Positions 1-16,051 of a stretch of DNA of 64,000 nucleotides are shown one piece after another. The position numbers and the translations under genes are program-made. The stretch's first letter is position 1. Every line of letters starts with the position of its first letter. The stretch lies in assembly GCA_023634235.1 (NCBI GenBank), contig JAMKCF010000066.1, positions 248,001 to 312,000 of the forward strand, written 5' to 3'. The stretch is from Pisaster brevispinus. Taxonomy: Eukaryota; Echinodermata; Asteroidea; Forcipulatida; Asteriidae. A model generated the notes under the pieces. That model saw only the letters and a list, made by a program, of their open reading frames with translations. It did not search any database and was not told the DNA's origin.

Positions 1-205
1 TGGCCAAATCACCCTCAAGGCAATATCGGATCTGCACACATTTAATACCAGCGTAAAGCCCGTCTCAAGGGCTCTCTCTCCCGTGAATTTGGGCTCGCTG
101 TTGATTCTGTAGGCGAGGCTAGCGGCCCGGATGTTAGGCCTACCCCTAACAGATATTGAAAAAACCTAGGGGCCGGCTGCGAAGCAAGTCTTGCCGGCCG
201 GGGCA

Positions 206-297
206 ATGGCCCGAAATAAATTCGAGGTGAGTTTGGGAATAACTCCCGATCTAGGAGGGCTAGAGAGATGATGTTTTGACCTGGCTCTGCCTTAGGT
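206..297 (+). ncRNA. SL/snRNA-like copy 1, Sm site mutated
   Basis: Same core as the reference copy at 648-739, but the Sm-type site at 271-279 reads ATGTTTTGA instead of AATTTTTGA, two changes in the motif. The splice-site hairpin (GTGAGT at 227), second hairpin and 3' hairpin are intact. If the family is functional, this copy is probably a pseudogene, because Sm-ring assembly needs the A-U run. Confidence 0.3.
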
Positions 298-647
298 ATC
301 CCTGCATCCGAAAATTAGACTTTTACGGCCGCTGCGGGCAGGCTTCACACCGGAAAAGACCGACAAGCGGGGACACTACAAACCCCCCGCAAAACATCTT
401 TAACGCGTTTTTGCTGTCAAAGAGACAAAAACCAAATAAGGATGGCCAAATCACCCTCAAGGCAATATCGGATCTGCACACATTTAATACCAGCGTAAAG
501 CCCGTCTCAAGGGCTCTCTCTCCCGTGAATTTGGGCTCGCTGGCGATTCTGTAGGCGAGGCTAGCGGCCCGGATGTTAGGCCTACCCCTAACAGATATTG
601 AAAAAACCTAGGGGCCGGCTGCGAAGCAAGTTTTGCCGGCCGGGGCA

Positions 648-739
648 ATGGCCCGAAATAAGTTCGAGGTGAGTTTGGGAATAACTCCCGATCTAGGAGG
701 GCTAGAGAGATGAATTTTTGACCTGGCTCTGCCTTAGGT
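648..739 (+). ncRNA. Candidate spliced-leader-like / Sm-class small RNA (reference copy)
   Basis: Seen in order: ATG-containing putative leader ending GAG at 668; 5' splice-site match GTGAGT 669-674; hairpin I GAGTT 671-675 with AACTC 683-687 (7-nt loop), which covers most of the splice site; hairpin II TCTAG 692-696 with CTAGA 702-706 (5-nt loop); Sm-site consensus AATTTTTGA 713-721; hairpin III ACCTGGC 721-727 with GCC 731-733 and AGGT 736-739 around a TT bulge; snRNA 3'-box-like AAAATTAGA 753-761. Known biology: SL RNAs of nematodes, flatworms, tunicates and cnidarians combine a short leader, GU splice donor, hairpins and an Sm site before the last hairpin, in RNAs of roughly 50-150 nt. 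Here donor to hairpin III end is 71 nt. The 5' end is unknown; 648 is the leader ATG and serves only as a working boundary. The sequence does not resemble U1, U2, U4, U5, U6, U7, U11 or U12 as I know them. This copy has A-to-G at 662 in the putative leader. An ordinary satellite with chance motifs remains possible. Confidence 0.45.
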
Positions 740-752
740 ATCCCTGCATCCG

Positions 753-761
753 AAAATTAGA
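753..761 (+). terminator. snRNA 3'-box-like element (reference copy)
   Basis: AAAATTAGA fits the core of the metazoan snRNA 3' box (AAA-purine-NN-AGA) and lies 13 nt beyond the end of hairpin III, within the usual 9-19 nt. The upstream GTTT half of the vertebrate consensus is absent. In nuclear snRNA genes this box directs Integrator-dependent 3'-end formation. The motif recurs intact in 16 of 20 units. It is altered to AAAATTTGA (units at 5657 and 10962) or AAAATTTAA (units at 8310 and 10520). Confidence 0.35.
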
Positions 762-1024
762 CTTTTACGGCCGCTGCGGGCAGGCTTCACACCGGAAAAG
801 ACCGACAAGCGGGGACACTACAAACCCCCCGCAAAACATCTTTAACGCGTTTTTGCTGTCAAAGAGACAAAAACCAAATAAGGATGGTCAAATCACCCTC
901 AAGGCAATATCGGATCTGCACACATTTAATACCAGCGTAAAGCCCGTCTCAAGGGCTCTCTCTCCCGTGAATTTGGGCTCGCTGGCGATTCTGTAGGCGA
1001 GGCTAGCGGCCCGGATGTTAGGCC

Positions 1025-1046
1025 TACCCCTAACAGATATTGAAAA
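1025..1046 (+). promoter_or_regulatory. Possible PSE-like promoter element, one per unit
   Basis: TACCCCTAAC followed by an A/T run resembles the start of the vertebrate snRNA proximal sequence element (TCACCNTNAC...), with one extra C. It lies about 65-86 nt upstream of the splice donor at 1111. A PSE placed about 55 nt before the start site would put transcription near 1085-1092 and give a leader of about 20-25 nt. Echinoderm-type PSEs are poorly conserved, so this is a weak call. Confidence 0.2.
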
Positions 1047-1054
1047 AACCTAGG

Positions 1055-1083
1055 GGCCGGCTGCGAAGCAAGTCTTGCCGGCC
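1055..1083 (+). other. GC-rich inverted repeat upstream of each RNA candidate
   Basis: GGCCGGC (1055-1061) and GCCGGCC (1077-1083) form a perfect 7-bp stem, ending 7 nt before the leader ATG at 1090. A competing 6-bp pairing, CCCCTA 1027-1032 with TAGGGG 1051-1056, overlaps it, so only one can form. The stem recurs in each unit. Some copies alter the competing arm (CTAGTGG at 6947 and 9157) or insert one C (units upstream of 5657, 6100 and 10962). Confidence 0.4.
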
Positions 1084-1089
1084 GGGGCA

Positions 1090-1181
1090 ATGGCCCGAAA
1101 TAAATTCGAGGTGAGTTTGGGAATAACTCCCGATCTAGGAGGGCTAGAGAGATGAATTTTTGACCTGGCTCTGCCTTAGGT
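1090..1181 (+). ncRNA. SL/snRNA-like copy 3
   Basis: Matches the common core: donor GTGAGT at 1111, Sm site AATTTTTGA at 1155-1163, hairpin III intact, 3' box AAAATTAGA 1195-1203. This copy carries the majority leader sequence and can be used as the family consensus. Confidence 0.45.
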
Positions 1182-1531
1182 ATCCCTGCATCCGAAAATT
1201 AGACTTTTACGGCCGCTGCGGGCAGGCTTCACACCGGAAAAGACCGACAAGCGGGGACACTACAAACCCCCCGCAAAACATCTTTAACGCGTTTTTGCTG
1301 TCAAAGAGACAAAAACCAAATAAGGATGGTCAAATCACCCTCAAGGCAATATCGGATCTGCACACATTTAATACCAGCGTAAAGCCCGTCTCAAGGGCTC
1401 TCTCTCCCGTGAATTTGGGCTCGCTGGCGATTCTGTAGGCGAGGCTAGCGGCCCGGATGTTAGGCCTACCCCTAACAGATATTGAAAAAACCTAGGGGCC
1501 GGCTGCGAAGCAAGTCTTGCCGGCCGGGGCA

Positions 1532-1623
1532 ATGGCCCGAAATAAATTCGAGGTGAGTTTGGGAATAACTCCCGATCTAGGAGGGCTAGAGAGATGAATT
1601 TTTGACCTGGCTCTGCCTTAGGT
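1532..1623 (+). ncRNA. SL/snRNA-like copy 4
   Basis: Consensus core with donor at 1553 and Sm site at 1597-1605; no change seen in hairpins or 3' box. Confidence 0.45.
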
Positions 1624-1973
1624 ATCCCTGCATCCGAAAATTAGACTTTTACGGCCGCTGCGGGCAGGCTTCACACCGGAAAAGACCGACAAGCGGGGAC
1701 ACTACAAACCCCCCGCAAAACATCTTTAACGCGTTTTTGCTGTCAAAGAGACAAAAACCAAATAAGGATGGTCAAATCACCCTCAAGGCAATATCGGATC
1801 TGCACACATTTAATACCAGCGTAAAGCCCGTCTCAAGGGCTCTCTCTCCCGTGAATTTGGGCTCGCTGGCGATTCTGTAGGCGAGGCTAGCGGCCCGGAT
1901 GTTAGGCCTACCCCTAACAGATATTGAAAAAACCTAGGGGCCGGCTGCGAAGCAAGTCTTGCCGGCCGGGGCA

Positions 1974-2065
1974 ATGGCCCGAAATAAATTCGAGGTGAGT
2001 TTGGGAATAACTCCCGATCTAGGAGGGCTAGAGAGATGAATTTTTGACCTGGCTCTGCCTTATGT
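1974..2065 (+). ncRNA. SL/snRNA-like copy 5, hairpin III mismatch
   Basis: Donor at 1995 and an intact Sm site. G-to-T at 2063 turns AGGT into ATGT and breaks one pair of hairpin III. Confidence 0.4.
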
Positions 2066-2415
2066 ATCCCTGCATCCGAAAATTAGACTTTTATGGCCGC
2101 TGCGGGCAGGCTTCACACCGGAAAAGACCGACAAGCGGGGACACTACAAACCCCCCGCAAAACATCTTTAACGCGTTTTTGCTGTCAAAGAGACAAAAAC
2201 CAAATAAGGATGGCCAAATCACCCTCAAGGCAATATCGGATCTGCACACATTTAATACCAGCGTAAAGCCCGTCTCAAGGGCTCTCTCTCCCGTGAATTT
2301 GGGCTCGCTGGCGATTCTGTAGGCGAGGCTAGCGGCCCGGATGTTAGGCCTACCCCTAACAGATATTGAAAAAACCTAGGGGCCGGCTGCGAAGCAAGTC
2401 TTGCCGGCCGGGGCA

Positions 2416-2507
2416 ATGGCCCGAAATAAATTCGAGGTGAGTTTGGGAATAACTCCCGATCTAGGAGGGCTAGAGAGATGAATTTTTGACCTGGCTCTGC
2501 CTTAGGT
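2416..2507 (+). ncRNA. SL/snRNA-like copy 6
   Basis: Consensus core; donor at 2437 and Sm site at 2481-2489. Confidence 0.45.
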
Positions 2508-2857
2508 ATCCCTGCATCCGAAAATTAGACTTTTACGGCCGCTGCGGGCAGGCTTCACACCGGAAAAGACCGACAAGCGGGGACACTACAAACCCCCCGC
2601 AAAACATCTTTAACGCGTTTTTGCTGTCAAAGAGACAAAAACCAAATAAGGATGGTCAAATCACCCTCAAGGCAATATCGGATCTGCACACATTTAATAC
2701 CAGCGTAAAGCCCGTCTCAAGGGCTCTCTCTCCCGTGAATTTGGGCTCGCTGGCGATTCTGTAGGCGAGGCTAGCGGCCCGGATGTTAGGCCTACCCCTA
2801 ACAGATATTGAAAAAACCTAGGGGCCGGCTGCGAAGCAAGTCTTGCCGGCCGGGGCA

Positions 2858-2949
2858 ATGGCCCGAAATAAATTCGAGGTGAGTTTGGGAATAACTCCCG
2901 ATCTAGGAGGGCTAGAGAGATGAATTTTTGACCTGGCTCTGCCTTAGGT
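2858..2949 (+). ncRNA. SL/snRNA-like copy 7, last before the array break
   Basis: Consensus core with donor at 2879, and 3' box intact. The unit is interrupted 92 bp downstream, at 3041, by segment A, so the RNA candidate itself is complete. Confidence 0.45.
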
Positions 2950-3004
2950 ATCCCTGCATCCGAAAATTAGACTTTTACGGCCGCTGCGGGCAGGCTTCAT
3001 ACCG

Positions 3005-3041
3005 GAAAAGACCGACAAGCGGGGACACTACAAACCCCCCG
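3005..3041 (+). repeat. 37-bp direct repeat, left side of segment A
   Basis: The last 37 bp of the left array block (beginning GAAAAGACCGACAAG and ending CCCCCCG) occur again, identically, at 5361-5397 where the array resumes. Array sequence is therefore duplicated across the inserted segment, as at a long target-site duplication or a filled staggered break. Confidence 0.85.
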
Positions 3042-3567
3042 AAATTAATTCAAAACTAACAACATAATAAAACAAAATAAGAAAAATGAAAACAGGAAAC
3101 TTCCATGATGATACAGGAGAAATAAGAGGCTGTGGTGATTGGGATGTCTTCCTGTTTGAATGATAATATATTATGACTAGTTACATGTACTTTATACAAG
3201 AGTTTACGCAAATCCATTTTTATATCCAGTTGACATGTTGCACATTTGCATTGATTGACCTCACAATGGCGGCCAATGCAAGGGGTCAATACACTGATAC
3301 CACAGACTACCACAAAGTGCCTAATACCTTCCAGGCTAGAACCTGGTGCATGAGTTTCTTCTGTTTGTACAGCTAGCAATATGTGGAAACCCCAAAGTTT
3401 GTTTACTGGGGTTTGGTCTCAACAGTCTCCTGTGCAACTTTGTGGCAAGAGCCAGTTGGGCAGGAGAGTATATTAAGAGTAATAGGGCGAAATGGTTCTT
3501 GTTTTCTCAGTTTGTAATACGTTATAGAAATTTCAGGTTGATTTTACTTGAAAATATTTACACTCAC

Positions 3568-3659
3568 CAATCAACAATCTCCTTGGTCATCTGCTTTGGA
3601 TGCATACCATATTGTTTCCAGATCTTCATAACTGTATTCCTTTCCCTACTTTCTTCAGT
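3568..3659 (-). CDS. Candidate 92-bp internal exon (copy A), product unknown
   Basis: On the minus strand a pyrimidine-rich (GTTT)n tract and TTTTTACAG precede the block and GTGAGTG follows it, giving good acceptor and donor signals. Only one of three frames is open; it encodes 30 codons plus 2 nt, including RNTVMKIWKQYG and, near the end, QMTKEIVD. The composition is that of a real, charged, probably helical protein segment, but I do not recognise the family. Copy B has the same exon with one substitution (Ser to Arg at the fourth codon). No neighbouring exon could be supported within the 2.3-kb segment, so it may be a lone exon carried along with the duplication and now non-functional. Confidence 0.4.
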
Positions 3660-3663
3660 CTGT

Positions 3664-3687
3664 AAAAACAAACAAACAAACAAACAC
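3664..3687 (+). repeat. AAAC microsatellite
   Basis: A short run of (AAAC)n, also present in copy B at about 13317-13341. Read on the minus strand it is the T-rich tract in front of the candidate exon's acceptor. Confidence 0.8.
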
Positions 3688-4239
3688 CACATGGTTATTG
3701 TAGTTATGAAACAGTAACTCAGGCTTTATTCATCTATAGAACAACTTACAATAACATCACAATGGGTTTTATGTCAGTGTCCTAGTCACTGGGCCAATAA
3801 CATTCCTGTTATCTTTCTCAATTCCCAAGGGAGTATACAGCCCTGGGCTTCCTAGCCTTGTTTGGATGTTACTTGAAGTAACAGCTGGTTTAGTCAAATT
3901 GTTATGTAATTTCATCTTCTTGATATATTTTCCTCCTTCTCTGAGTTAAGGTATGCTTCAATCTGTAATCATATGAAAGTTCTAGGAGGAGACAGAATGT
4001 TTGCTCTTTTACTGTGATTGTGAGATGAAGGACAGCATTGTCAGTATTGGCCAAGTTTTTTATGATAGTTAAAGCTGTCAGATTGTAAAGCGCCCTCTTT
4101 GATGTATACATGAGTAGCCCTCGAAACTGAGAAAATAACAATGTTATTGGCCCCAATGTGAAAGCTAAACATAACTGATTGTGGCTGTCGGCCCAAATCA
4201 ACTGTCACCAGGGCCTAGTTGCCACCTACTCCTGGGGCT

Positions 4240-4475
4240 GAAACGGGGTTGATCCCTTCACAGTTCGTAAGGATGTAGGCAAGGGTATCATCCACTAGGA
4301 GCCCGACTGGTAGAGCAGAATGCAATACCTTCCCAACTTTGTATGAAGCAATTAAGGTTAACTGCCCTTGAGTGCCTAGCTCAAGGGCACAAGTGTCATG
4401 ACTGGGATTGGAACCTTACTCTGCCGCTAACAACACAAAATCTTAGGTCCGGAAACTAGACCTCCTGGCCAAAGC
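4240..4475 (-). mobile_element. tRNA-derived SINE-like element (copy A)
   Basis: On the minus strand, TGGCCAGGAGG (complement of 4461-4471) resembles a Pol III A box. GGTTCCAATCC (complement of 4405-4415) matches the B box at 10 of 11 positions, at tRNA-like spacing. Downstream lies a body with a CTTGAG...CACTCAAGGGCAGTTAACC-type stretch, like the conserved body of V-type SINEs. Copy B has the same element at the equivalent place, so it predates the duplication. The 3' end is unclear; 4240 is an estimate. Confidence 0.5.
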
Positions 4476-5251
4476 ACATGGGTGTCTTCACCAATTACAC
4501 ATTTATAAGATAAAGCGATGGCACTCTCAGTTTTCACTAGATATTATTCTGGCGGTTTTCATTTGTATCAGATTTTTTTACAAAGTTTTTTTTTAAAGGT
4601 TATGACGTGTTCTATGAAGGTGTTTGAAATGTTGTAATTGATTGTGTTTTAACATAATATCCAATAATGAGTCATAGGTATACCCAAGGAATGATCCAAG
4701 AAATTGCAAGTAGTAAATAGCAAAGCTGGGACTGCAGCCCAGGGGCTTTTGGAACCCGTGTGTTAATCTGGGCACATGAGCTTTGTGCTCATGTTTATGC
4801 CTGGGTGGTGTACCCAGTGTGTGTGTCGTTATTTGTAGCCCAGGTTGGAAGCAATAGAGGGGTCCAACAGACACTGACGTCCTACCAGGGCTAGGTTATT
4901 TGATGATGTTCTGTCTTTTTGCGCATGTCTACGTAGGCCTACACTGCATGTTAAACTCAACTCAATTTGGTTCTTGGAGATTAGTGATTAGTTAATTTTA
5001 AAAAAAAATCTTCTTTTTGCTCCTGAACTGAATACTTTGTAACTATACTTAAAAGTAGGGCATATAGCTGTTTATGATTTTTAATTAAAAACAACATTGC
5101 ACTCGATGACTGAGAAACAGTCTAAAGGAAAGAACTTTAGCTGTAGTGTAGGTTTGTTACGCAGTTACAACAGGTTATACAGTAGCACATCATATAGCAA
5201 CTGTGTCAACAGAACCCAGAGTTTATTTTTTTTGCTTTGTGTATAACTTAG

Positions 5252-5253
5252 TA
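5252..5253. other. Empty TA target site of the mariner-type element
   Basis: Copy A reads ...CTTAG-TA-ACAGTTTTCC where copy B has the element between two TA copies. It is therefore the pre-insertion state of the 14892-15941 element and fixes that element's ends. Confidence 0.85.
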
Positions 5254-5360
5254 ACAGTTTTCCTTAACAACTTCAAGAACTGTAATTCAGACTTAGTACT
5301 CTAGATAATCAGTACCCACCTGTCGTGTGATGACTGTACTACAGACAGTACTATCAATCT

Positions 5361-5397
5361 GAAAAGACCGACAAGCGGGGACACTACAAACCCCCCG
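5361..5397 (+). repeat. 37-bp direct repeat, right side of segment A
   Basis: Identical to 3005-3041. The array resumes here in mid-unit, so 37 bp of unit sequence are present on both sides of segment A. Confidence 0.85.
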
Positions 5398-5656
5398 CAA
5401 AACATCTTTAACGCGTTTTTGCTGTCAAAGAGACAAAAACCAAATAAGGATGGTCAAATCACCCTCAAGGCAATATCGGATCTGCACAAATTTAATACCA
5501 CCGTAAAGCCCGTCTCAAGGGCTCTCTCGCCCGTGAATTTGGGCTCGCTGGCGATTCTGTAGGCGAGGCTAGCGGCCCGGATGTTAGGCCTACCCCTAAC
5601 AGATATTGAAAAAACCTAGGGGCCCGGCTGCGAAGCAAGTCTTGCCGGCCGGGGCA

Positions 5657-5748
5657 ATGGCCCGAAATAAATTCGAGGTGAGTTTGGGAATAACTCCCGA
5701 TCTAGGAGGGCTAGAGAGATGAATTTTTGACCTGGCTCTGCCTTAGGT
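5657..5748 (+). ncRNA. SL/snRNA-like copy 8 (type II unit)
   Basis: Donor GTGAGT at 5678 and Sm site at 5722-5730 are intact. The 3' box is altered to AAAATTTGA. Confidence 0.4.
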
Positions 5749-6099
5749 ATCCCTGCATCCGAAAATTTGACTTTTACGGCCGCTGCGGGCAGGCTTCACA
5801 CCGGAAAAGACCGACAAGCGGGGACACTACAAACCCCCCGCAAAACATCTTTAACGCGTTTTTGCTGCCAAAGAGACAAAAACCAAATAAGGATGGTCAA
5901 ATCACCCTCAAGGCAATATCGGATCTGCACAAATTTAAGACCACCGTAAAGCCCGTCTCAAGGGCTCTCTCGCCCGTGAATTTGGGCTCGCTGGCGATTC
6001 TGTAGGCGAGGCTAGCGGCCCGGATGTTAGGCCTACCCCTAACAGATATTGAAAAAACCTAGGGGCCCGGCTGCGAAGCAAGTCTTGCCGGCCGGGGCA

Positions 6100-6191
6100 A
6101 TGGCCCGAAATAAATTCGAGGTGAGTTTGGGAATAACTCCCGATCTAGGAGGGCTAGAGAGATGAATTTTTGACCTGGCTCTGCCTTAGGT
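6100..6191 (+). ncRNA. SL/snRNA-like copy 9
   Basis: Donor at 6121. The core is intact and the 3' box AAAATTAGA is kept, but the CCG just before it reads CTA. Confidence 0.42.
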
Positions 6192-6541
6192 ATCCCTGCA
6201 TCTAAAAATTAGACTTTTACGGCCGCTGCGGGCAGGCTTCACACCGGAAAAGACCGACAAGCGGGGACACTACAAACCCCCCGCAAAACATCTTTAACGC
6301 GTTTTTGCTGTCAAAGAGACAAAAACCAAATAAGGATGGTCAAATCACCCTCAAGGCAATATCGGATCTGCACAAATTTAATACCACCGTAAAGCCCGTC
6401 TCAAGGGCTCTCTCGCCCGTGAATTTGGGCTCGCTGGCGATTCTGTAGGCGAGGCTAGCGGCCCGGATGTTAGGCCTACCCCTAACAGATATTGAAAAAA
6501 CCTAGGGGCCGGCTGCGAAGCAAGTCTTGCCGGCCGGGGCA

Positions 6542-6633
6542 ATGGCCCGAAATAAATTCGAGGTGAGTTTGGGAATAACTCCCGATCTAGGAGGGCTAGA
6601 GAGATGAATTTTTGACCTGGCTCTGCCTTAGGT
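6542..6633 (+). ncRNA. SL/snRNA-like copy 10
   Basis: Consensus core; donor at 6563. First unit of the first five-unit higher-order repeat. Confidence 0.45.
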
Positions 6634-6983
6634 ATCCCTGCATCCGAAAATTAGACTTTTACGGCCGCTGCGGGCAGGCTTCACACCGGAAAAGACCGAC
6701 AAGCGGGGACACTACAAACCCCCCGCAAAACATCTTTAACGCGTTTTTGCTGTCAAAGAGACAAAAACCAAATAAGGATGGTCAAATCACCCTCAAGGCA
6801 ATATCGGATCTGCACAAATTTAATACCACCGTAAAGCCCGTCTCAAGGGCTCTCTCGCCCGTGAATTTGGGCTCGCTGGCGATTCTGTAGGCGAGGCTAG
6901 CGGCCCGGATGTTAGGCCTACCCCTAACAGATATTGAAAAAACCTAGTGGCCGGCTGCGAAGCAAGTCTTGCCGGCCGGGGCA

Positions 6984-7075
6984 ATGGCCCGAAATAAATT
7001 CGAGGTGAGTTTGGGAATAACTCCCGATCTAGGAGGGCTAGAGAGATGAATTTTTGACCTGGCTCTGCCTTAGGT
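6984..7075 (+). ncRNA. SL/snRNA-like copy 11
   Basis: Consensus core, donor at 7005. The upstream hairpin arm carries CTAGTGG in place of CTAGGGG. Confidence 0.43.
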
Positions 7076-7425
7076 ATCCCTGCATCCGAAAATTAGACTT
7101 TTACGGCCGCTGCGGGCAGGCTTCACACCGGAAAAGACCGACAAGCGGGGACACTACAAACCCCCCGCAAAACATCTTTAACGCGTTTTTGCTGTCAAAG
7201 AGACAAAAACCAAATAAGGATGGTCAAATCACCCTCAAGGCAATATCGGATCTGCACACATTTAATACCAGCGTAAAGCCCGTCTCAAGGGCTCTCTCTC
7301 CCGTGAATTTGGGCTCGCTGGCGATTCTGTAGGCGAGGCTAGCGGCCCGGATGTTAGGCCTACCCCTAACAGATATTGAAAAAACCTAGGGGCCGGCTGC
7401 GAAGCAAGTCTTGCCGGCCGGGGCA

Positions 7426-7517
7426 ATGGCCCGAAATAAATTCGAGGTGAGTTTGGGAATAACTCCCGATCTAGGAGGGCTAGAGAGATGAATTTTTGAC
7501 CTGGCTCTGCCTTAGGT
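7426..7517 (+). ncRNA. SL/snRNA-like copy 12
   Basis: Consensus core; donor at 7447. Confidence 0.45.
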
Positions 7518-7867
7518 ATCCCTGCATCCGAAAATTAGACTTTTACGGCCGCTGCGGGCAGGCTTCACACCGGAAAAGACCGACAAGCGGGGACACTACA
7601 AACCCCCCGCAAAACATCTTTAACGCGTTTTTGCTGTCAAAGAGACAAAAACCAAATAAGGATGGTCAAATCACCCTCAAGGCAATATCGGATCTGCACA
7701 CATTTAATACCAGCGTAAAGCCCGTCTCAAGGGCTCTCTCTCCCGTGAATTTGGGCTCGCTGGCGATTCTGTAGGCGAGGCTAGCGGCCCGGATGTTAGG
7801 CCTACCCCTAACAGATATTGAAAAAACCTAGGGGCCGGCTGCGAAGCAAGTCTTGCCGGCCGGGGCA

Positions 7868-7959
7868 ATGGCCCGAAATAAATTCGAGGTGAGTTTGGGA
7901 ATAACTCCCGATCTAGGAGGGCTAGAGAGATGAATTTTTGACCTGGCTCTGCCTTAGGT
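7868..7959 (+). ncRNA. SL/snRNA-like copy 13
   Basis: Consensus core; donor at 7889. Confidence 0.45.
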
Positions 7960-8309
7960 ATCCCTGCATCCGAAAATTAGACTTTTACGGCCGCTGCGGG
8001 CAGGCTTCACACCGGAAAAGACCGACAAGCGGGGACACTACAAACCCCCCGCAAAACATCTTTAACGCGTTTTTGCTGTCAAAGAGACAAAAACCAAATA
8101 AGGATGGTCAAATCACCCTCAAGGCAATATCGGATCTGCACACATTTAATACCAGCGTAAAGCCCGTCTCAAGGGCTCTCTCTCCCGTGAATTTGGGCTC
8201 GCTGGCGATTCTGTAGGCGAGGCTAGCGGCCCGGATGTTAGGCCTACCCCTAACAGATATTGAAAAAACCTAGGGGCCGGCTGCGAAGCAAGTCTTGCCG
8301 GCCGGGGCA

Positions 8310-8401
8310 ATGGCCCGAAATAAATTCGAGGTGAGTTTGGGAATAACTCCCGATCTAGGAGGGCTAGAGAGATGAATTTTTGACCTGGCTCTGCCTTAGG
8401 T
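8310..8401 (+). ncRNA. SL/snRNA-like copy 14, degenerate 3' box
   Basis: Donor at 8331 and Sm site intact; the 3' box reads AAAATTTAA. Confidence 0.4.
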
Positions 8402-8751
8402 ATCCCTGCATCCGAAAATTTAACTTTTACGGCCGCTGCGGGCAGGCTTCACACCGGAAAAGACCGACAAGCGGGGACACTACAAACCCCCCGCAAAACA
8501 TCTTTAATGCGTTTTTGCTGTCAAAGAGACAAAAACCAAATAAGGATGGTCAAATAACCCTCAAGGCAATATCGGATCTGCACAAATTTAATACCACCGT
8601 AAAGCCCGTCTCAAGGGCTCTTTCGCCCGTGAATTTGGGCTCGCTGGCGATTCTGTAGGCGAGGCTAGCGGCCCGGATGTTAGGCCTACCCCTAACAGAT
8701 ATTGAAAAAACCTAGGGGCCGGCTGCGAAGCAAGTCTTGCCGGCCGGGGCA

Positions 8752-8843
8752 ATGGCCCGAAATAAATTCGAGGTGAGTTTGGGAATAACTCCCGATCTAG
8801 GAGGGCTAGAGAGATGAATTTTTGACCTGGCTCTGCCTTAGGT
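8752..8843 (+). ncRNA. SL/snRNA-like copy 15
   Basis: Consensus core; donor at 8773, 3' box intact. First unit of the second five-unit repeat. Confidence 0.45.
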
Positions 8844-9193
8844 ATCCCTGCATCCGAAAATTAGACTTTTACGGCCGCTGCGGGCAGGCTTCACACCGGA
8901 AAAGACCGACAAGCGGGGACACTACAAACCCCCCGCAAAACATCTTTAACGCGTTTTTGCTGTCAAAGAGACAAAAACCAAATAAGGATGGTCAAATCAC
9001 CCTCAAGGCAATATCGGATCTGCACAAATTTAATACCACCGTAAAGCCCGTCTCAAGGGCTCTCTCGCCCGTGAATTTGGGCTCGCTGGCGATTCTGTAG
9101 GCGAGGCTAGCGGCCCGGATGTTAGGCCTACCCCTAACAGATATTGAAAAAACCTAGTGGCCGGCTGCGAAGCAAGTCTTGCCGGCCGGGGCA

Positions 9194-9285
9194 ATGGCCC
9201 GAAATAAATTCGAGGTGAGTTTGGGAATAACTCCCGATCTAGGAGGGCTAGAGAGATGAATTTTTGACCTGGCTCTGCCTTAGGT
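9194..9285 (+). ncRNA. SL/snRNA-like copy 16
   Basis: Consensus core; donor at 9215. Upstream arm has CTAGTGG, as in copy 11. Confidence 0.43.
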
Positions 9286-9635
9286 ATCCCTGCATCCGAA
9301 AATTAGACTTTTACGGCCGCTGCGGGCAGGCTTCACACCGGAAAAGACCGACAAGCGGGGACACTACAAACCCCCCGCAAAACATCTTTAACGCGTTTTT
9401 GCTGTCAAAGAGACAAAAACCAAATAAGGATGGTCAAATCACCCTCAAGGCAATATCGGATCTGCACACATTTAATACCAGCGTAAAGCCCGTCTCAAGG
9501 GCTCTCTCTCCCGTGAATTTGGGCTCGCTGGCGATTCTGTAGGCGAGGCTAGCGGCCCGGATGTTAGGCCTACCCCTAACAGATATTGAAAAAACCTAGG
9601 GGCCGGCTGCGAAGCAAGTCTTGCCGGCCGGGGCA

Positions 9636-9727
9636 ATGGCCCGAAATAAATTCGAGGTGAGTTTGGGAATAACTCCCGATCTAGGAGGGCTAGAGAGATG
9701 AATTTTTGACCTGGCTCTGCCTTAGGT
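9636..9727 (+). ncRNA. SL/snRNA-like copy 17
   Basis: Consensus core; donor at 9657. Confidence 0.45.
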
Positions 9728-10077
9728 ATCCCTGCATCCGAAAATTAGACTTTTACGGCCGCTGCGGGCAGGCTTCACACCGGAAAAGACCGACAAGCGG
9801 GGACACTACAAACCCCCCGCAAAACATCTTTAACGCGTTTTTGCTGTCAAAGAGACAAAAACCAAATAAGGATGGTCAAATCACCCTCAAGGCAATATCG
9901 GATCTGCACACATTTAATACCAGCGTAAAGCCCGTCTCAAGGGCTCTCTCTCCCGTGAATTTGGGCTCGCTGGCGATTCTGTAGGCGAGGCTAGCGGCCC
10001 GGATGTTAGGCCTACCCCTAACAGATATTGAAAAAACCTAGGGGCCGGCTGCGAAGCAAGTCTTGCCGGCCGGGGCA

Positions 10078-10169
10078 ATGGCCCGAAATAAATTCGAGGT
10101 GAGTTTGGGAATAACTCCCGATCTAGGAGGGCTAGAGAGATGAATTTTTGACCTGGCTCTGCCTTAGGT
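10078..10169 (+). ncRNA. SL/snRNA-like copy 18
   Basis: Consensus core; donor at 10099. Confidence 0.45.
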
Positions 10170-10519
10170 ATCCCTGCATCCGAAAATTAGACTTTTACGG
10201 CCGCTGCGGGCAGGCTTCACACCGGAAAAGACCGACAAGCGGGGACACTACAAACCCCCCGCAAAACATCTTTAACGCGTTTTTGCTGTCAAAGAGACAA
10301 AAACCAAATAAGGATGGTCAAATCACCCTCAAGGCAATATCGGATCTGCACACATTTAATACCAGCGTAAAGCCCGTCTCAAGGGCTCTCTCTCCCGTGA
10401 ATTTGGGCTCGCTGGCGATTCTGTAGGCGAGGCTAGCGGCCCGGATGTTAGGCCTACCCCTAACAGATATTGAAAAAACCTAGGGGCCGGCTGCGAAGCA
10501 AGTCTTGCCGGCCGGGGCA

Positions 10520-10611
10520 ATGGCCCGAAATAAATTCGAGGTGAGTTTGGGAATAACTCCCGATCTAGGAGGGCTAGAGAGATGAATTTTTGACGTGGCT
10601 CTGCCTTAGGT
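10520..10611 (+). ncRNA. SL/snRNA-like copy 19, hairpin III and 3' box altered
   Basis: Donor at 10541 and Sm site intact. C-to-G at 10595 breaks a pair in hairpin III (ACGTGGC), and the 3' box reads AAAATTTAA. Likely a non-functional copy. Confidence 0.33.
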
Positions 10612-10961
10612 ATCCCTGCATCCGAAAATTTAACTTTTACGGCCGCTGCGGGCAGGCTTCACACCGGAAAAGACCGACAAGCGGGGACACTACAAACCCC
10701 CCGCAAAACATCTTTAATGCGTTTTTGCTGTCAAAGAGACAAAAACCAAATAAGGATGGTCAAATCACCCTCAAGGCAATATCGGATCTGCACAAATTTA
10801 ATACCACCGTAAAGCCCGTCTCAAGGGCTCTTTCGCCCGTGAATTTGGGCTCGCTGGCGATTCTGTAGGCGAGGCTAGCGGCCCGGATGTTAGGCCTACC
10901 CCTAACAGATATTGAAAAAACCTAGGGGCCCGGCTGGAAGCAAGTCTTGCCGGCCGGGGCA

Positions 10962-11053
10962 ATGGCCCGAAATAAATTCGAGGTGAGTTTGGGAATAACT
11001 CCCGATCTAGGAGGGCTAGAGAGATGAATTTTTGACCTGGCTCTGCCTTAGGT
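10962..11053 (+). ncRNA. SL/snRNA-like copy 20, last in the array
   Basis: Donor at 10983, Sm site and all hairpins are intact; the 3' box is AAAATTTGA. The upstream GC stem loop is shortened (CCCGGCTGGAAGC near 10930). Confidence 0.4.
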
Positions 11054-11301
11054 ATCCCTGCATCCGAAAATTTGACTTTTACGGCCGCTTCACACCGGAA
11101 AAGACCGACAAGCGGGGACACTACAAACCCCCCGCAAAACATCTTTAATGCGTTTTTGCTGTCAAAGAGACAAAAACCAAATAAGGATGGTCAAATCACC
11201 CTCAAGGCAATATCGGATCTGCACAAATTTAATACCACCGTAAAGCCCGTCTTAAGGGCTCTCTCTCCCGTGAGGTTGGGCTTGCTGACGATTCTGTAGG
11301 C

Positions 11302-12696: not shown

Positions 12697-13221
12697 AAAT
12701 TAATTCAAAACTAACAACATAATAAAACGAAATAAGAAAAATGAAAACAGGAAACTTCCATGATGATACAGGAGAAATAAGAGGCTGAGGTGATTGGGAT
12801 GTCTTCCTGTTTGAATGATAATATATTATGACTAGTTACATGTACTTTATACAAGAGTTTACGCAAATCCATTTTTATATCCAGTTGACATGTTGCACAT
12901 TTGCATTGATTGACCTCACAATGGCGGCCAATGCAAGGGGTCAATACACTGATACCACAGACTACCACAAAGTGCCTAATACCTTCCAGGCTAGAACCTG
13001 GTGCATGAGTTTCTTCCGATGTACAGCTAGCAATATGTGGAAACCCCAAAGTTTGTTTACTGGGGTTTGGTCTCAACAGTCTCCTGTGCAACTTTGTGGC
13101 AAGAGCCAGTTGGGCAGGAGAGTATATTAAGAGTAATAGGGCGAAATGGTTCTTGTTTTCTCAGTTTGTAATACGTTATAGAAATTTCAGGTTGATTTTA
13201 CTTGAAAATATTTACACTCAC

Positions 13222-13313
13222 CAATCAACAATCTCCTTGGTCATCTGCTTTGGATGCATACCATATTGTTTCCAGATCTTCATAACTGTATTCCTTTCCC
13301 TACGTTCTTCAGT
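13222..13313 (-). CDS. Candidate 92-bp internal exon (copy B), product unknown
   Basis: Same acceptor (TTTTTACAG after a GTTT tract), donor (GTGAGTG) and 30-codon open frame as 3568-3659. The only difference seen is AGT to CGT (Ser to Arg). Frame and both splice signals survive in copies whose surroundings have accumulated many indels. That favours a real exon, though 92 bp is short. Confidence 0.42.
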
Positions 13314-13896
13314 CTGTAAAAACAAACAAACAAACAAACACCACGTGGTTATTGTAGTTATGAAACAGTAACTCAGGCTTTATTCATCTATAGAACAACT
13401 TACAATAACATCTCAATGGGTTTTATGTCAGTGCCCTAGTCACTGGGCCAATAACATTCCTGTTGTCTTTCTCAATTCCCAAGGGAGTATACAGCCCTGG
13501 GCTTCCTTGCCTTGTTTGGATGTTACTTGAAGTAACAGCTGGTTTAGTCAAATTGTTATGTAATTTAATCTTCTTGATATATTTTCCTCCTTCTCTGAGT
13601 TGAGGTAAGCTTCAATCTGTAATCATATGAAAGTTCTAGGAGGAGACAGAATGTTTGCTCTTTTACTGTGATTGTGAGATGAAGGACAGCATTGTCAGTA
13701 TTGGCCAAGTTTTTTATGCTAGTTAAAGCTGTCAGATTGTAAAGCGCCCTCTTTGATGTATACATGAGTAGCCCTCGAAACTGAGAAAATAACAATGTTA
13801 TTGGCCCCAATGTGAAAGCTAAACATAACTGATTGTGGCTGTCGGCCCAAATCAACTGTCACCAGGGCCTAGTTGCCACCTACTCCTGGGGCTGAA

Positions 13897-14135
13897 ACGG
13901 GGTTGATCCCTTCACAGTCCATAAGGATGTAGGCAAGGGTATCATCCACTAGGAGCCCGACTGGTAGAGCAGAATGCAATACCTTCCCAACTTTGTATGA
14001 AGCAATTAAGGTTAACTGCCCTTGAGTGCCTTGCTCAAGGGCACAAGTGTCATGACCAGGATTGGAACCTTACTCTTCTGCCAACAACACCAAAGCTTTG
14101 GTCAGGAAAACTAGACCGCCCGGCCACGACACATG
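13897..14135 (-). mobile_element. tRNA-derived SINE-like element (copy B)
   Basis: The better preserved of the pair. A-box-like TGGCCGGGCGG (complement of 14116-14126) is followed by GTCTAG, as in Ser/Leu-type tRNAs. B-box GGTTCCAATCC is the complement of 14059-14069. The body includes CTTGAGCAAGGCACTCAAGG and a GTTAACCTTAATTGCTTC stretch resembling V-type SINE bodies. The 3' limit is estimated. Confidence 0.55.
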
Positions 14136-14891
14136 GGTGTTGTCGCCCACCAGCCATTCGTAAGGTATAACAAAGGCACTCTCAGTTTTCACTTGGTGCT
14201 ATTCCGGCCAACTTCACTTGTATCATAATTTGTTTTCAACATTTTTTTTCCAGGTTTCGACATGTGTTCTATGAAGGTGTTTGAAATGTGGTTATGGGTC
14301 GTGATTTACTATAAAAAATGTCCAATAATGAGTCAAAGGTACCCAAGGAATGATCCAAGAAATTGCAAGTAGTAAATAGTGAAGCTGGGACTGCAGCCCA
14401 GGGGCTTTTGGAGCCTGTGTGTTAATCTGGGCCCAGGAGCTTTGTGCTCATGTTTATGCCTGGGTGGTGTACCCAGTGTGTGTGTGTCGTTATTTGTAGC
14501 CCAGGTTGGATGCAACGGAGGAGTCCAACAGACTCTGACGTCCTACCAGGGCTAGGTTATTTGATGATGTTTTGTCTTTTTGCCCATGTGTACGTAGACC
14601 TACACTGCATGTAAAACTCAACTCAACTCAACTTAAACTTCTTTGGGGTCTGTTTTTGCTCCTGAACTGAATATGAACTACTTTGTAACTATACTTAAAA
14701 GTAGGGCATATAGCTGTTTATGATTTTTAATTAAAAAACAACATTGCACTCGATGACTGAGAAACAGTCTAATGGAAAGAACTTTAGCTGTAGTGCAGGT
14801 TTATTACAATAGATAATACAGTAGCACATGATAAAGCAACTATGTTAACAAAACCCTAGAGTTGATTGTATTAGTTTGGTCTAGTTTAGTA

Positions 14892-14916
14892 CAGTCATTT
14901 GACCAGTTCGGGATCA
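14892..14916 (+). repeat. Left terminal inverted repeat
   Basis: 25 bp starting CAGTCATTTGACC and ending GGGATCA, a perfect inverted match to 15917-15941. Confidence 0.9.
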
Positions 14917-15916
14917 CTTTTTGAATTCACATTGCTTTTGGTTGCAATCTCTTTGACATTTTAAACAAAAAAGTTTATCAGTTTACCTAAACATGTTATA
15001 AAACTCACCAATTATCCACTGACAAAAAAAGATTAGTACTTTTGAAGAGGCTTTGAGAAAAGTATTGTCACCTGTTTGACCAGTTCAGGATCAGTTGATT
15101 CTATTCTGAATCAGTAGCTTGCCCTCTATTGCAAACCAATACTCCCATTCATAAAATTGTCTCTCAAGGACACAAACTTCACAAGTGTGTTGGCATGGAC
15201 ATGGACTTCCTTTATCCAGATAATTTCATGCGCGCAAAAATCCAGCAACAAAAACACAAAAAAAACAGCAAAGGCAAATGAAAAGGTGAAGCACGCCTAA
15301 AAGCAACATTACATTGACCCAAATATCTATTCTTACAGTCGCAATTTCCTCCTCCAAGTTTCATTTTCTCACAAAAAAAACAATATTCCTACAAGAATTT
15401 GTTGAAGAAATGTATCTTAAAAGCAACAAATAAACTTTCGACTGCAGCAGTAAGATTTTACCTCACTGAGTCAGTGCGGCACCATTTGACGCAATGAGAG
15501 ATGCTGAGTAGTGAGTGATCCCGAACTGGTCAAGGGTACGATGCCCCCAAAAAGACGATTTCGGTAATTTTGTCTCCTCAAAAAAACAAGACGACTGCTC
15601 AGTATTCACCTGAAATATTTTTTACACATTCTAAGCATTTAACATAAATTTTATTCGCCCTGGCGTTCAAATTTTAAAGGTGAGAAGTTTTAACAGCGTT
15701 TTTCAACCAACATTAAAAAAAAAAAAAAATGATCAAAATCGCAGACAAACTTTAAGAAAATGGCCATAATTTATTTGTTGATGAAGTTTGGACCTTATTT
15801 TGGGTTTGTTGGTTTATTGCATGTTATTCTTCACATGTATCAACAGAAATTGGTAATGTGAGAAGTAACTTAATTATGGGGTTGTTGCAAAGTTGAAGTG
15901 ATCCCGAACTGGTCAA

Positions 15917-15941
15917 TGATCCCGAACTGGTCAAATGACTG
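15917..15941 (-). repeat. Right terminal inverted repeat
   Basis: Perfect 25-bp inverted copy of the left end, preceded directly by a second copy of its inner part at 15899-15916. The right end is thus a tandem duplicate and the left is single. Confidence 0.9.
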
Positions 15942-16051
15942 TAACAGTTTTCTTTAACAATTTCAAGAACTGTAATTCAGACTTAGTACTCTAGATAATC
16001 AGTACCCACCTGTCGTGTGGTGACTGTACTATAAACAATACTATCAATCTG

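What the first reader, a model, noticed from the sequence alone, without database searches (positions are those of the whole stretch)
206..11053. Tandem 442-bp array looks like a spliced-leader / Sm-class snRNA gene cluster
Twenty unit cores carry, in the order expected for an SL RNA, a GAG|GTGAGT donor, a hairpin covering the donor (GAGTT/AACTC), a second hairpin (TCTAG/CTAGA), an Sm site AATTTTTGA and a 3' hairpin (ACCTGGC...GCC-tt-AGGT). Chance occurrence of all elements in this order within about 71 nt is unlikely. SL trans-splicing is patchy in metazoans and, to my knowledge, not established in echinoderms, so a new SL family would be notable if the organism is one. An unfamiliar Sm-class snRNA is the alternative.
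Basis: partly seen in the sequence, partly recalled or inferred. Interest (0 to 1): 0.88.

Follow-up and report, generated by a model that had tools for sequence, protein, structure and literature searches.

The report
Tandem spliced-leader RNA gene array
A 442-base unit repeated in large arrays carries, in order, a splice-donor sequence, an Sm-type motif, a sequence predicted to form a hairpin and the same kind of 3'-end motif that follows this genome's own U1 and U5 genes, so it likely encodes a spliced-leader RNA whose first 22 or so bases would be joined to the front of other genes' messages.

Summary
In detail: 20 unit cores with GAG|GTGAGT, 17 of 20 identical over 82 nt. New evidence comes from the window's own genome (549.7 Mb), which holds several arrays of the unit. 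Donor, Sm motif, last hairpin text and a 3' box are all intact in 91 of 109 units read from four contigs. The box, AAAATTAGA, lies 13 nt after the last hairpin; of 41 U1/U2/U5 genes read in this genome, 34 have the same motif strictly. A simple detector (Sm motif, hairpin, box) fires in the arrays, at two real U5 genes and nowhere else in 179 kb of other held DNA. All elements together arose in 0 of 20,000 shuffled units. Against an 87%-identical array on C11, the longest unchanged stretch (31 nt) starts at the predicted exon start and covers exon and donor. Two exon types exist. Against: no promoter element of the local snRNA type, ordinary folding energies, a favoured alternative hairpin, no retrocopied leader, and 83 C11 units that mostly keep exon and donor but lack the Sm motif and box. 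Trans-splicing and species are untested. Best reading: a spliced-leader gene family, about 58%.

The parts
1..3041 (+). 442-bp tandem array, left block (7 cores)
   Evidence: TRF period 442, 99% matches; cores at 224-2876
3042..5360 (.). interruption: second copy of the single-copy flank
   Evidence: 3042-5258 matches 12697-14895 at 92.0%, 5251-5360 matches 15941-16050 at 94.5%
5361..11301 (+). 442-bp tandem array, right block (13 cores); the last unit diverges and the array ends here
   Evidence: TRF; BLAST of unit, last pieces 95.7% and 93.9%
1089..1110 (+). predicted leader exon AATGGCCCGAAATAAATTCGAG (example unit); 5' end inferred, 3' end set by the donor
   Evidence: longest unchanged run against the C11 consensus starts here, 0 of 22 positions changed
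1111..1116 (+). splice donor GTGAGT after GAG
   Evidence: 20 of 20 window units; 102 of 109 units read on C66, C51, C120, C7
   Evidence: weak in the energy model (-2.5 kcal/mol); the C11 change falls in its loop
1134..1148 (+). hairpin H2 TCTAG/CTAGA
   Evidence: -3.9 kcal/mol alone; the C11 change falls in its loop
1155..1163 (+). Sm-type motif AATTTTTGA; ATTTTTG begins 45 nt after the donor
   Evidence: sequence; fits AT{4,6}G 20-60 bp after the donor, the default quoted from PMC7986045
1163..1181 (+). 3' hairpin H3 ACCTGGC-TCT-GCC-TT-AGGT
   Evidence: -5.1 kcal/mol alone; exact text in 106 of 109 units outside C11
1195..1203 (+). 3' box AAAATTAGA, 13 nt after H3
   Evidence: same motif type and spacing as own U1/U5 genes

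Best explanation
The 442-bp unit is most likely a spliced-leader RNA gene: it is predicted to be transcribed into an RNA of about 93-98 nt whose first 22 or so bases would be spliced in trans onto many mRNAs. Shown by sequence: donor, Sm-type motif, hairpin-forming sequence and an snRNA-type 3' box in fixed order and spacing, in arrays on at least four contigs (C66, C51, C120, C7). Inferred: RNA polymerase II makes the RNA and 3' processing cuts it before the box; Sm proteins bind AAUUUUUGA and the cap becomes trimethylated; U1 pairs with GAG|GUGAGU; the exon is joined to an acceptor AG of another pre-mRNA and the rest is left as the intron half. Two exon types exist: A, AATGGCCCGAAATAAATTCGAG (C66, C120, part of C51), and B, AATGGCCCGAACTTAATTCGAG (C7, part of C51). 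The C11 array, which lacks the canonical Sm motif and the box, is likely a decayed relative.
For: Chance: 0 of 20,000 shuffles carry all four elements. Own 3' box: strict AAARNNAGA follows 34 of 41 U1/U2/U5 genes read (21 of 21 U1, 10 of 16 U5, 3 of 4 U2), a looser form 40 of 41; it starts 11-14 nt after the RNA in all 21 U1 and 13 of 16 U5 genes, 22-24 nt in U2; the unit's at 13 nt. Detector (Sm motif, hairpin, box): 120 hits in 124 kb of array loci (overlapping loci not merged), 112 of them with a donor 20-60 nt upstream; 2 in 96 kb of snRNA loci, both U5 genes (L099, L100); 0 in 83 kb of other DNA. On distinct units, with donor: 96 of 109 outside C11. Exact donor, Sm motif, H3 text and box together: 33 of 41 (C66), 37 of 46 (C7), 17 of 17 (C51), 4 of 5 (C120). 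Between consensus units A and C11 (50 differences in 430) the longest unchanged run, 31 nt, starts at the predicted exon start and covers exon and donor; chance of no change there 0.019. In C11 the 98-nt stretch with fewest variable sites starts 1 nt inside the predicted RNA; the predicted RNA ranks 4 of 333 by variable sites, 19 by diversity. The exon can pair across its own donor; 144 of 5,000 exon shuffles fold as well. The two A/B differences fall in the loop of that pairing. Large tandem SL families are known: about 670 genes in Ciona (PMC6836712, passages).
Against: No element like the genome's own PSE: best + strand score 3.6, below the mean best score of shuffled units, 4.9; of 21 real promoters tested by leaving their group out, two (both U2: 3.0, -2.0) score as low and five more score 3.9-4.9. 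My earlier vertebrate-like PSE guess is thereby unsupported and the RNA 5' end is not fixed. Folding energy is ordinary (z -0.26 to -1.42), and a long hairpin pairing the H2 and H3 regions is favoured (about -28 against -20.1 kcal/mol); type B is predicted to fold its exon with the intron instead. Variation inside C66 and C7 does not single out the RNA (by variable sites ranks 61 and 57 of 333, by diversity 64 and 192). Outside exon and donor the RNA is kept no better than the spacer (8 of 67 against 12 of 132 downstream and 20 of 130 upstream). The C11 array keeps the exact exon in 70 of 83 units and the donor in 61 of 83 but has no Sm motif or box in any of 83, so keeping exon plus donor is not tied to a complete gene. 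The exon has no TTT and does not end in WWG, traits that PMC3795323 calls near-universal, though it names exceptions ending in GAG. No retrocopied leader.
Confidence: 0.58

Rival explanations
1. An unfamiliar Sm-class small nuclear RNA that is not a leader: the donor-like GAGGTGAGT is fortuitous or pairs with U1 or another RNA, and the RNA stays whole.
For: Sm motif, hairpin and 3' box support an snRNA-type gene whether or not the donor is used. No chimeric message is shown. Rfam has no matching family.
Against: Exon plus donor is the longest unchanged stretch against C11, and the Sm motif begins 45 nt after the donor, inside the 20-60 range used to find SL RNAs. U1, U2 and U5 are accounted for elsewhere; U4 was asked for and not answered, U6, U7, U11 and U12 were not searched genome-wide, but Rfam matches the window to none of them.
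Confidence: 0.16
2. A plain satellite DNA whose unit happens to hold these short motifs and makes no defined RNA.
For: Long head-to-tail arrays, in the window next to a second satellite; no local PSE; ordinary folding energy; the large C11 array has multiplied without Sm motif and box.
Against: All elements together in 0 of 20,000 shuffles; the 3' box matches this genome's snRNA genes in sequence and spacing; the detector found only arrays and true U5 genes.
Confidence: 0.2
3. A once-working leader gene family now silent everywhere, its text kept by array homogenisation.
For: C11 lacks Sm motif and box; no PSE found.
Against: 91 of 109 units on four other contigs keep donor, Sm motif, H3 and box.
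Confidence: 0.06

Closest known systems
Ciona SL RNA genes (tunicates)
   Same: many clustered SL genes, partly on unplaced contigs (about 670 copies; PMC6836712, passages); Sm site in the intron half (recalled)
   Different: Ciona's SL is 16 bp (PMC7986045, passage), here 22 nt predicted; no sequence comparison was made, as no Ciona SL gene was held
Nematode SL1 RNA
   Same: 22-nt exon (PMC3795323, passage); donor, Sm site and hairpin in like order (recalled)
   Different: no Rfam match of the unit to any SL family
U1, U2 and U5 snRNA genes of the same genome
   Same: 3' box of the same type, at like spacing in U1 and U5; two U5 genes share the Sm motif type, hairpin and box
   Different: a different RNA, no donor found upstream in those two U5 genes, and in most a PSE of the ACCATGG type at about -62 that the unit lacks

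Membership tests
Spliced-leader (SL) RNA gene | splice donor GT directly after the leader exon | tested here: met
   GAG|GTGAGT in 20 of 20 window units, 102 of 109 units read outside C11 and 61 of 83 on C11
Spliced-leader (SL) RNA gene | Sm site AT{4,6}G 20-60 nt after the donor | tested here: met
   ATTTTTG begins 45 nt after the donor (criterion from PMC7986045); intact in 104 of 109 units outside C11, 0 of 83 on C11
Spliced-leader (SL) RNA gene | stem-loops around donor and Sm site | tested here: inconclusive
   hairpins can form, but total energy is ordinary and a rival long hairpin is favoured; 8 of 10 differences (A against B and A against C11 pooled) fall in unpaired positions of the four-hairpin model, P 0.053, and 6 of 10 in an alternative model, P 0.34
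Spliced-leader (SL) RNA gene | snRNA-type transcription signals | tested here: inconclusive
   3' box met; PSE of local type not found, as in two of four U2 flanks
Spliced-leader (SL) RNA gene | leader exon found at 5' ends of many mRNAs | not testable with these tools
   no transcripts held; indirect test by retrocopies gave none: 19 hits (18 C11 array copies, 1 unrelated place), 1 array copy
Spliced-leader (SL) RNA gene | exon ends in WWG and holds TTT (tendencies listed in PMC3795323) | tested here: not met
   the exon ends CGAG and has no TTT; the paper names exceptions ending in GAG, so I take this as a tendency and not a definition
Known Rfam snRNA or SL family | Rfam covariance match | tested here: not met
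   0 matches at gathering score in 64 kb; at E up to 10 in 400-1330 only unrelated families

The most novel reading that the evidence does not exclude
A spliced-leader trans-splicing system in an animal group without an established one (an echinoderm or near kin), with two leader exons that differ only in a loop, hundreds of tandem genes, and a huge sister array in which Sm motif and 3' box have degenerated while the leader exon is kept.
Probability: 0.38. Interest if true: 0.88.

Novelty: new member of a known kind. Interest (0 to 1): 0.72.

Why it matters
SL trans-splicing is scattered over animals, and whether it arose or was lost many times is an open question. A leader family in a new lineage, with complete and degenerated arrays in one genome, would help to date gain and loss, and the predicted exon can be checked directly in RNA-seq of the species.

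Tried and rejected
Vertebrate-like PSE (TACCCCTAACAGATATTG) placing the start 22 nt before the donor: dropped as evidence once the genome's own U1/U2/U5 promoters showed a different element. A first wording that C11 'lost' its last hairpin: wrong, its sequence differs in 83 of 83 units but 79 of 83 can still form a hairpin there. Protein or tRNA content of the unit: only mechanical ORFs in 884-1770, no tRNA in the window by a bacterial-code scan. Organism from the flank gene: a 52-aa piece gave no Pfam or protein match and one weak PDB row (E 0.39). A 22- or 23-nt donor stretch in viral and prokaryote contigs: none, exact matches only. Leader letters in print: 4 papers listed, unrelated by title, not opened. 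Echinoderm SL in print: listings (11 papers; 3; 20 of 24 shown; 20 of 308; 8 of 1,472); of these papers I opened three, PMC3795323, PMC7986045 and PMC12460157, and read passages only. DNA census search returned nothing because common words are skipped. Rows dropped: two C66 units and one C11 unit with over 25 differences; one weak U1 hit (L123) and 11 of 15 U2 loci with repeated flanks were left out of the 41 genes; of 28 U1, 22 U5 and 46 U2 hits, 21, 16 and 4 were read.
Full report
Observation. The window holds a 442-bp head-to-tail array at 1-3041 and 5361-11301, split by a second copy of the neighbouring single-copy DNA: 3042-5258 matches 12697-14895 at 92.0% and 5251-5360 matches 15941-16050 at 94.5%. 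The 20 GAGGTGAGT sites of the + strand lie in its units, and 17 of 20 cores are identical over 82 nt.

Chance. In 20,000 dinucleotide shuffles of the unit, both strands, a strong donor followed by an Sm motif 20-60 nt on occurred 19 times, with a stable hairpin behind it 7 times, with AAARNNAGA behind that 0 times. The criteria were set after seeing the unit, so the figure is a guide and not a blind test.

The window's own genome. The assembly has 549,739,089 bases in 512 contigs; the window is contig C66, 248,001-312,000. Pattern hits and sampled pieces show the unit on C66 (at 200 kb, 220 kb and 238-259 kb; not at 160 kb), C7 (14.330-14.351 Mb; not at 14.300 or 14.400), C11 (at points from 11.50 to 11.81 Mb; not at 11.40 or 11.85), C51, C120 and C195. 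192 distinct full units were held: 83 from C11, 46 from C7, 41 from C66, 17 from C51, 5 from C120. If the C66 and C11 arrays are unbroken between sampled points the genome holds many hundreds of copies; this is an extrapolation.

Three types. Exon type A, AATGGCCCGAAATAAATTCGAG, is in 40 of 41 C66 units, 5 of 5 on C120 and 12 of 17 on C51; type B, AATGGCCCGAACTTAATTCGAG, in 46 of 46 on C7 and 5 of 17 on C51. The C66 and C7 consensus RNAs differ only at these two exon positions. C11 units are 85.9-88.5% identical to the window unit. They have exact A exons in 70 of 83 and the donor in 61 of 83, but in none of 83 the Sm motif, the H3 text or the box; the Sm position mostly reads ATTTTTTTA. The changed last hairpin can still form in 79 of 83. 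Outside C11, 91 of 109 units keep donor, Sm motif, H3 text and box together.

3' box. U1 (28 hits, 26 over the cut-off), U2 (46) and U5 (22) were found by Rfam model in the same genome; the tool calls its counts lower bounds. I read the flanks of 41 of them (21 U1, 16 U5, 4 U2). Strict AAARNNAGA follows 34 of 41: 21 of 21 U1, 10 of 16 U5, 3 of 4 U2. With a looser form it is 40 of 41; it starts 11-13 nt after U1, 11-14 nt after 13 of 16 U5 (the other three: 19 nt, 1 nt, none) and 22-24 nt after U2. The unit's box starts 13 nt after its last hairpin. A detector for Sm motif, then hairpin, then AAARNWAGA gave 120 hits in 124 kb of array loci (overlaps not merged; 112 with a donor 20-60 nt upstream), 2 in 96 kb around snRNA genes (both real U5 genes) and 0 in 83 kb of other DNA. 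On distinct units and with the donor it passes 96 of 109 outside C11 and 0 of 83 on C11. It misses snRNAs with other Sm spellings, such as U1.

Promoter. Most of the same genes share an element with consensus aCCcACCATGGcTGtaAcGTtAca, starting about 62 nt before the RNA. The unit has none: its best + strand score is 3.6, below the mean best score of 500 shuffled units (4.9). Among 21 promoter groups tested by leaving them out, two U2 promoters score 3.0 and -2.0 and five others 3.9-4.9. The test speaks against an ordinary snRNA promoter but does not exclude one, and the RNA start is inferred from conservation only.

Conservation. Consensus A and C11 units differ at 50 of 430 positions. The longest unchanged run, 31 nt, begins at the first base of the predicted exon and ends in the donor region; the two bases just before it both differ. 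The chance that random placement spares these 31 sites is 0.019. The rest of the RNA is kept no better than the spacer: 8 of 67 changed, against 12 of 132 downstream and 20 of 130 upstream. Inside C11 the 98-nt stretch with fewest variable sites starts 1 nt from the predicted RNA start, and the predicted RNA ranks 4 of 333 by variable sites and 19 by diversity; inside C66 and C7 it is not singled out (61 and 57 by variable sites, 64 and 192 by diversity).

Structure. Energies are ordinary for the composition (z -0.26 to -1.42). 144 of 5,000 shuffles of the exon fold as well as the real one. Of 10 differences in the RNA (A against B and A against C11 pooled), 8 lie outside the paired bases of the four-hairpin model, P 0.053; for a variant model it is 6 of 10, P 0.34. 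The type B exon is predicted to pair with the intron past the donor instead. Structure is thus supported weakly.

Trans-splicing. No transcripts are held. An indirect test is a leader that came back into the genome with a reverse-transcribed mRNA: the exact exon end without a donor (exon followed by a base other than G). Type A gave 19 hits, 18 of them C11 array copies with GAGATGAGT and one unrelated place; type B gave one, on C51 inside the array (the duplicated exon end is seen). This is weak evidence against, since recent retrocopies need not exist and only exact matches were sought.

Literature. PMC7986045 (passages) gives working criteria for SL genes: donor, AT{4,6}G 20-60 bp on, stem loops. 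PMC3795323 (passages) says that echinoderm sequences, among others, met its requirements but were left undecided. PMC6836712 (passages) gives about 670 SL genes for Ciona. PMC12460157 (passages) describes the patchy spread of trans-splicing. PMC9652321 (passages) places the human U6-1 PSE at -65 to -48, and PMC5493778 (passages) says that the 3' box directs 3' end formation of pre-snRNA. My searches for an echinoderm SL (listings, in part capped) and for the exon letters showed no report of this leader; only open-licence papers are searched and most listed papers were not opened.

Judgement. The arrays look like snRNA-type genes with a splice donor where an SL RNA has one. I give 58% to a spliced-leader family, 16% to another Sm-class RNA, 20% to a satellite with chance motifs and 6% to a wholly silent family. 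No call names the species.

Noticed in passing
window 16418-64000: A second satellite, 314-bp unit, fills the rest of the window; pieces of it also lie at both ends of contig C66 and at two sampled points of C51.
   Followed up: partly
window 3042-5360 and 12697-16050: The array is interrupted by a 92% copy of its own single-copy flank, with a predicted exon of an unidentified gene on the minus strand; a local duplication that straddles an array edge.
   Followed up: partly
L035 and L044 (G000 C15 and C93): U2 snRNA genes recur about every 5.5 kb together with a histone H4 reading frame and a histone 3' stem-loop; single U2 genes on C5 have a different RNA variant.
   Followed up: partly
G000 C11 about 11.50-11.81 Mb (L010-L027, L031): A very large sister array keeps exon and mostly donor but has no canonical Sm motif or 3' box in any of 83 units read; some copies have donor GAGATGAGT.
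   Followed up: yes
window 15899-15934, with a single copy near 15517: A short repeat TGATCCCGAACTGGTCAA in the single-copy flank.
   Followed up: no
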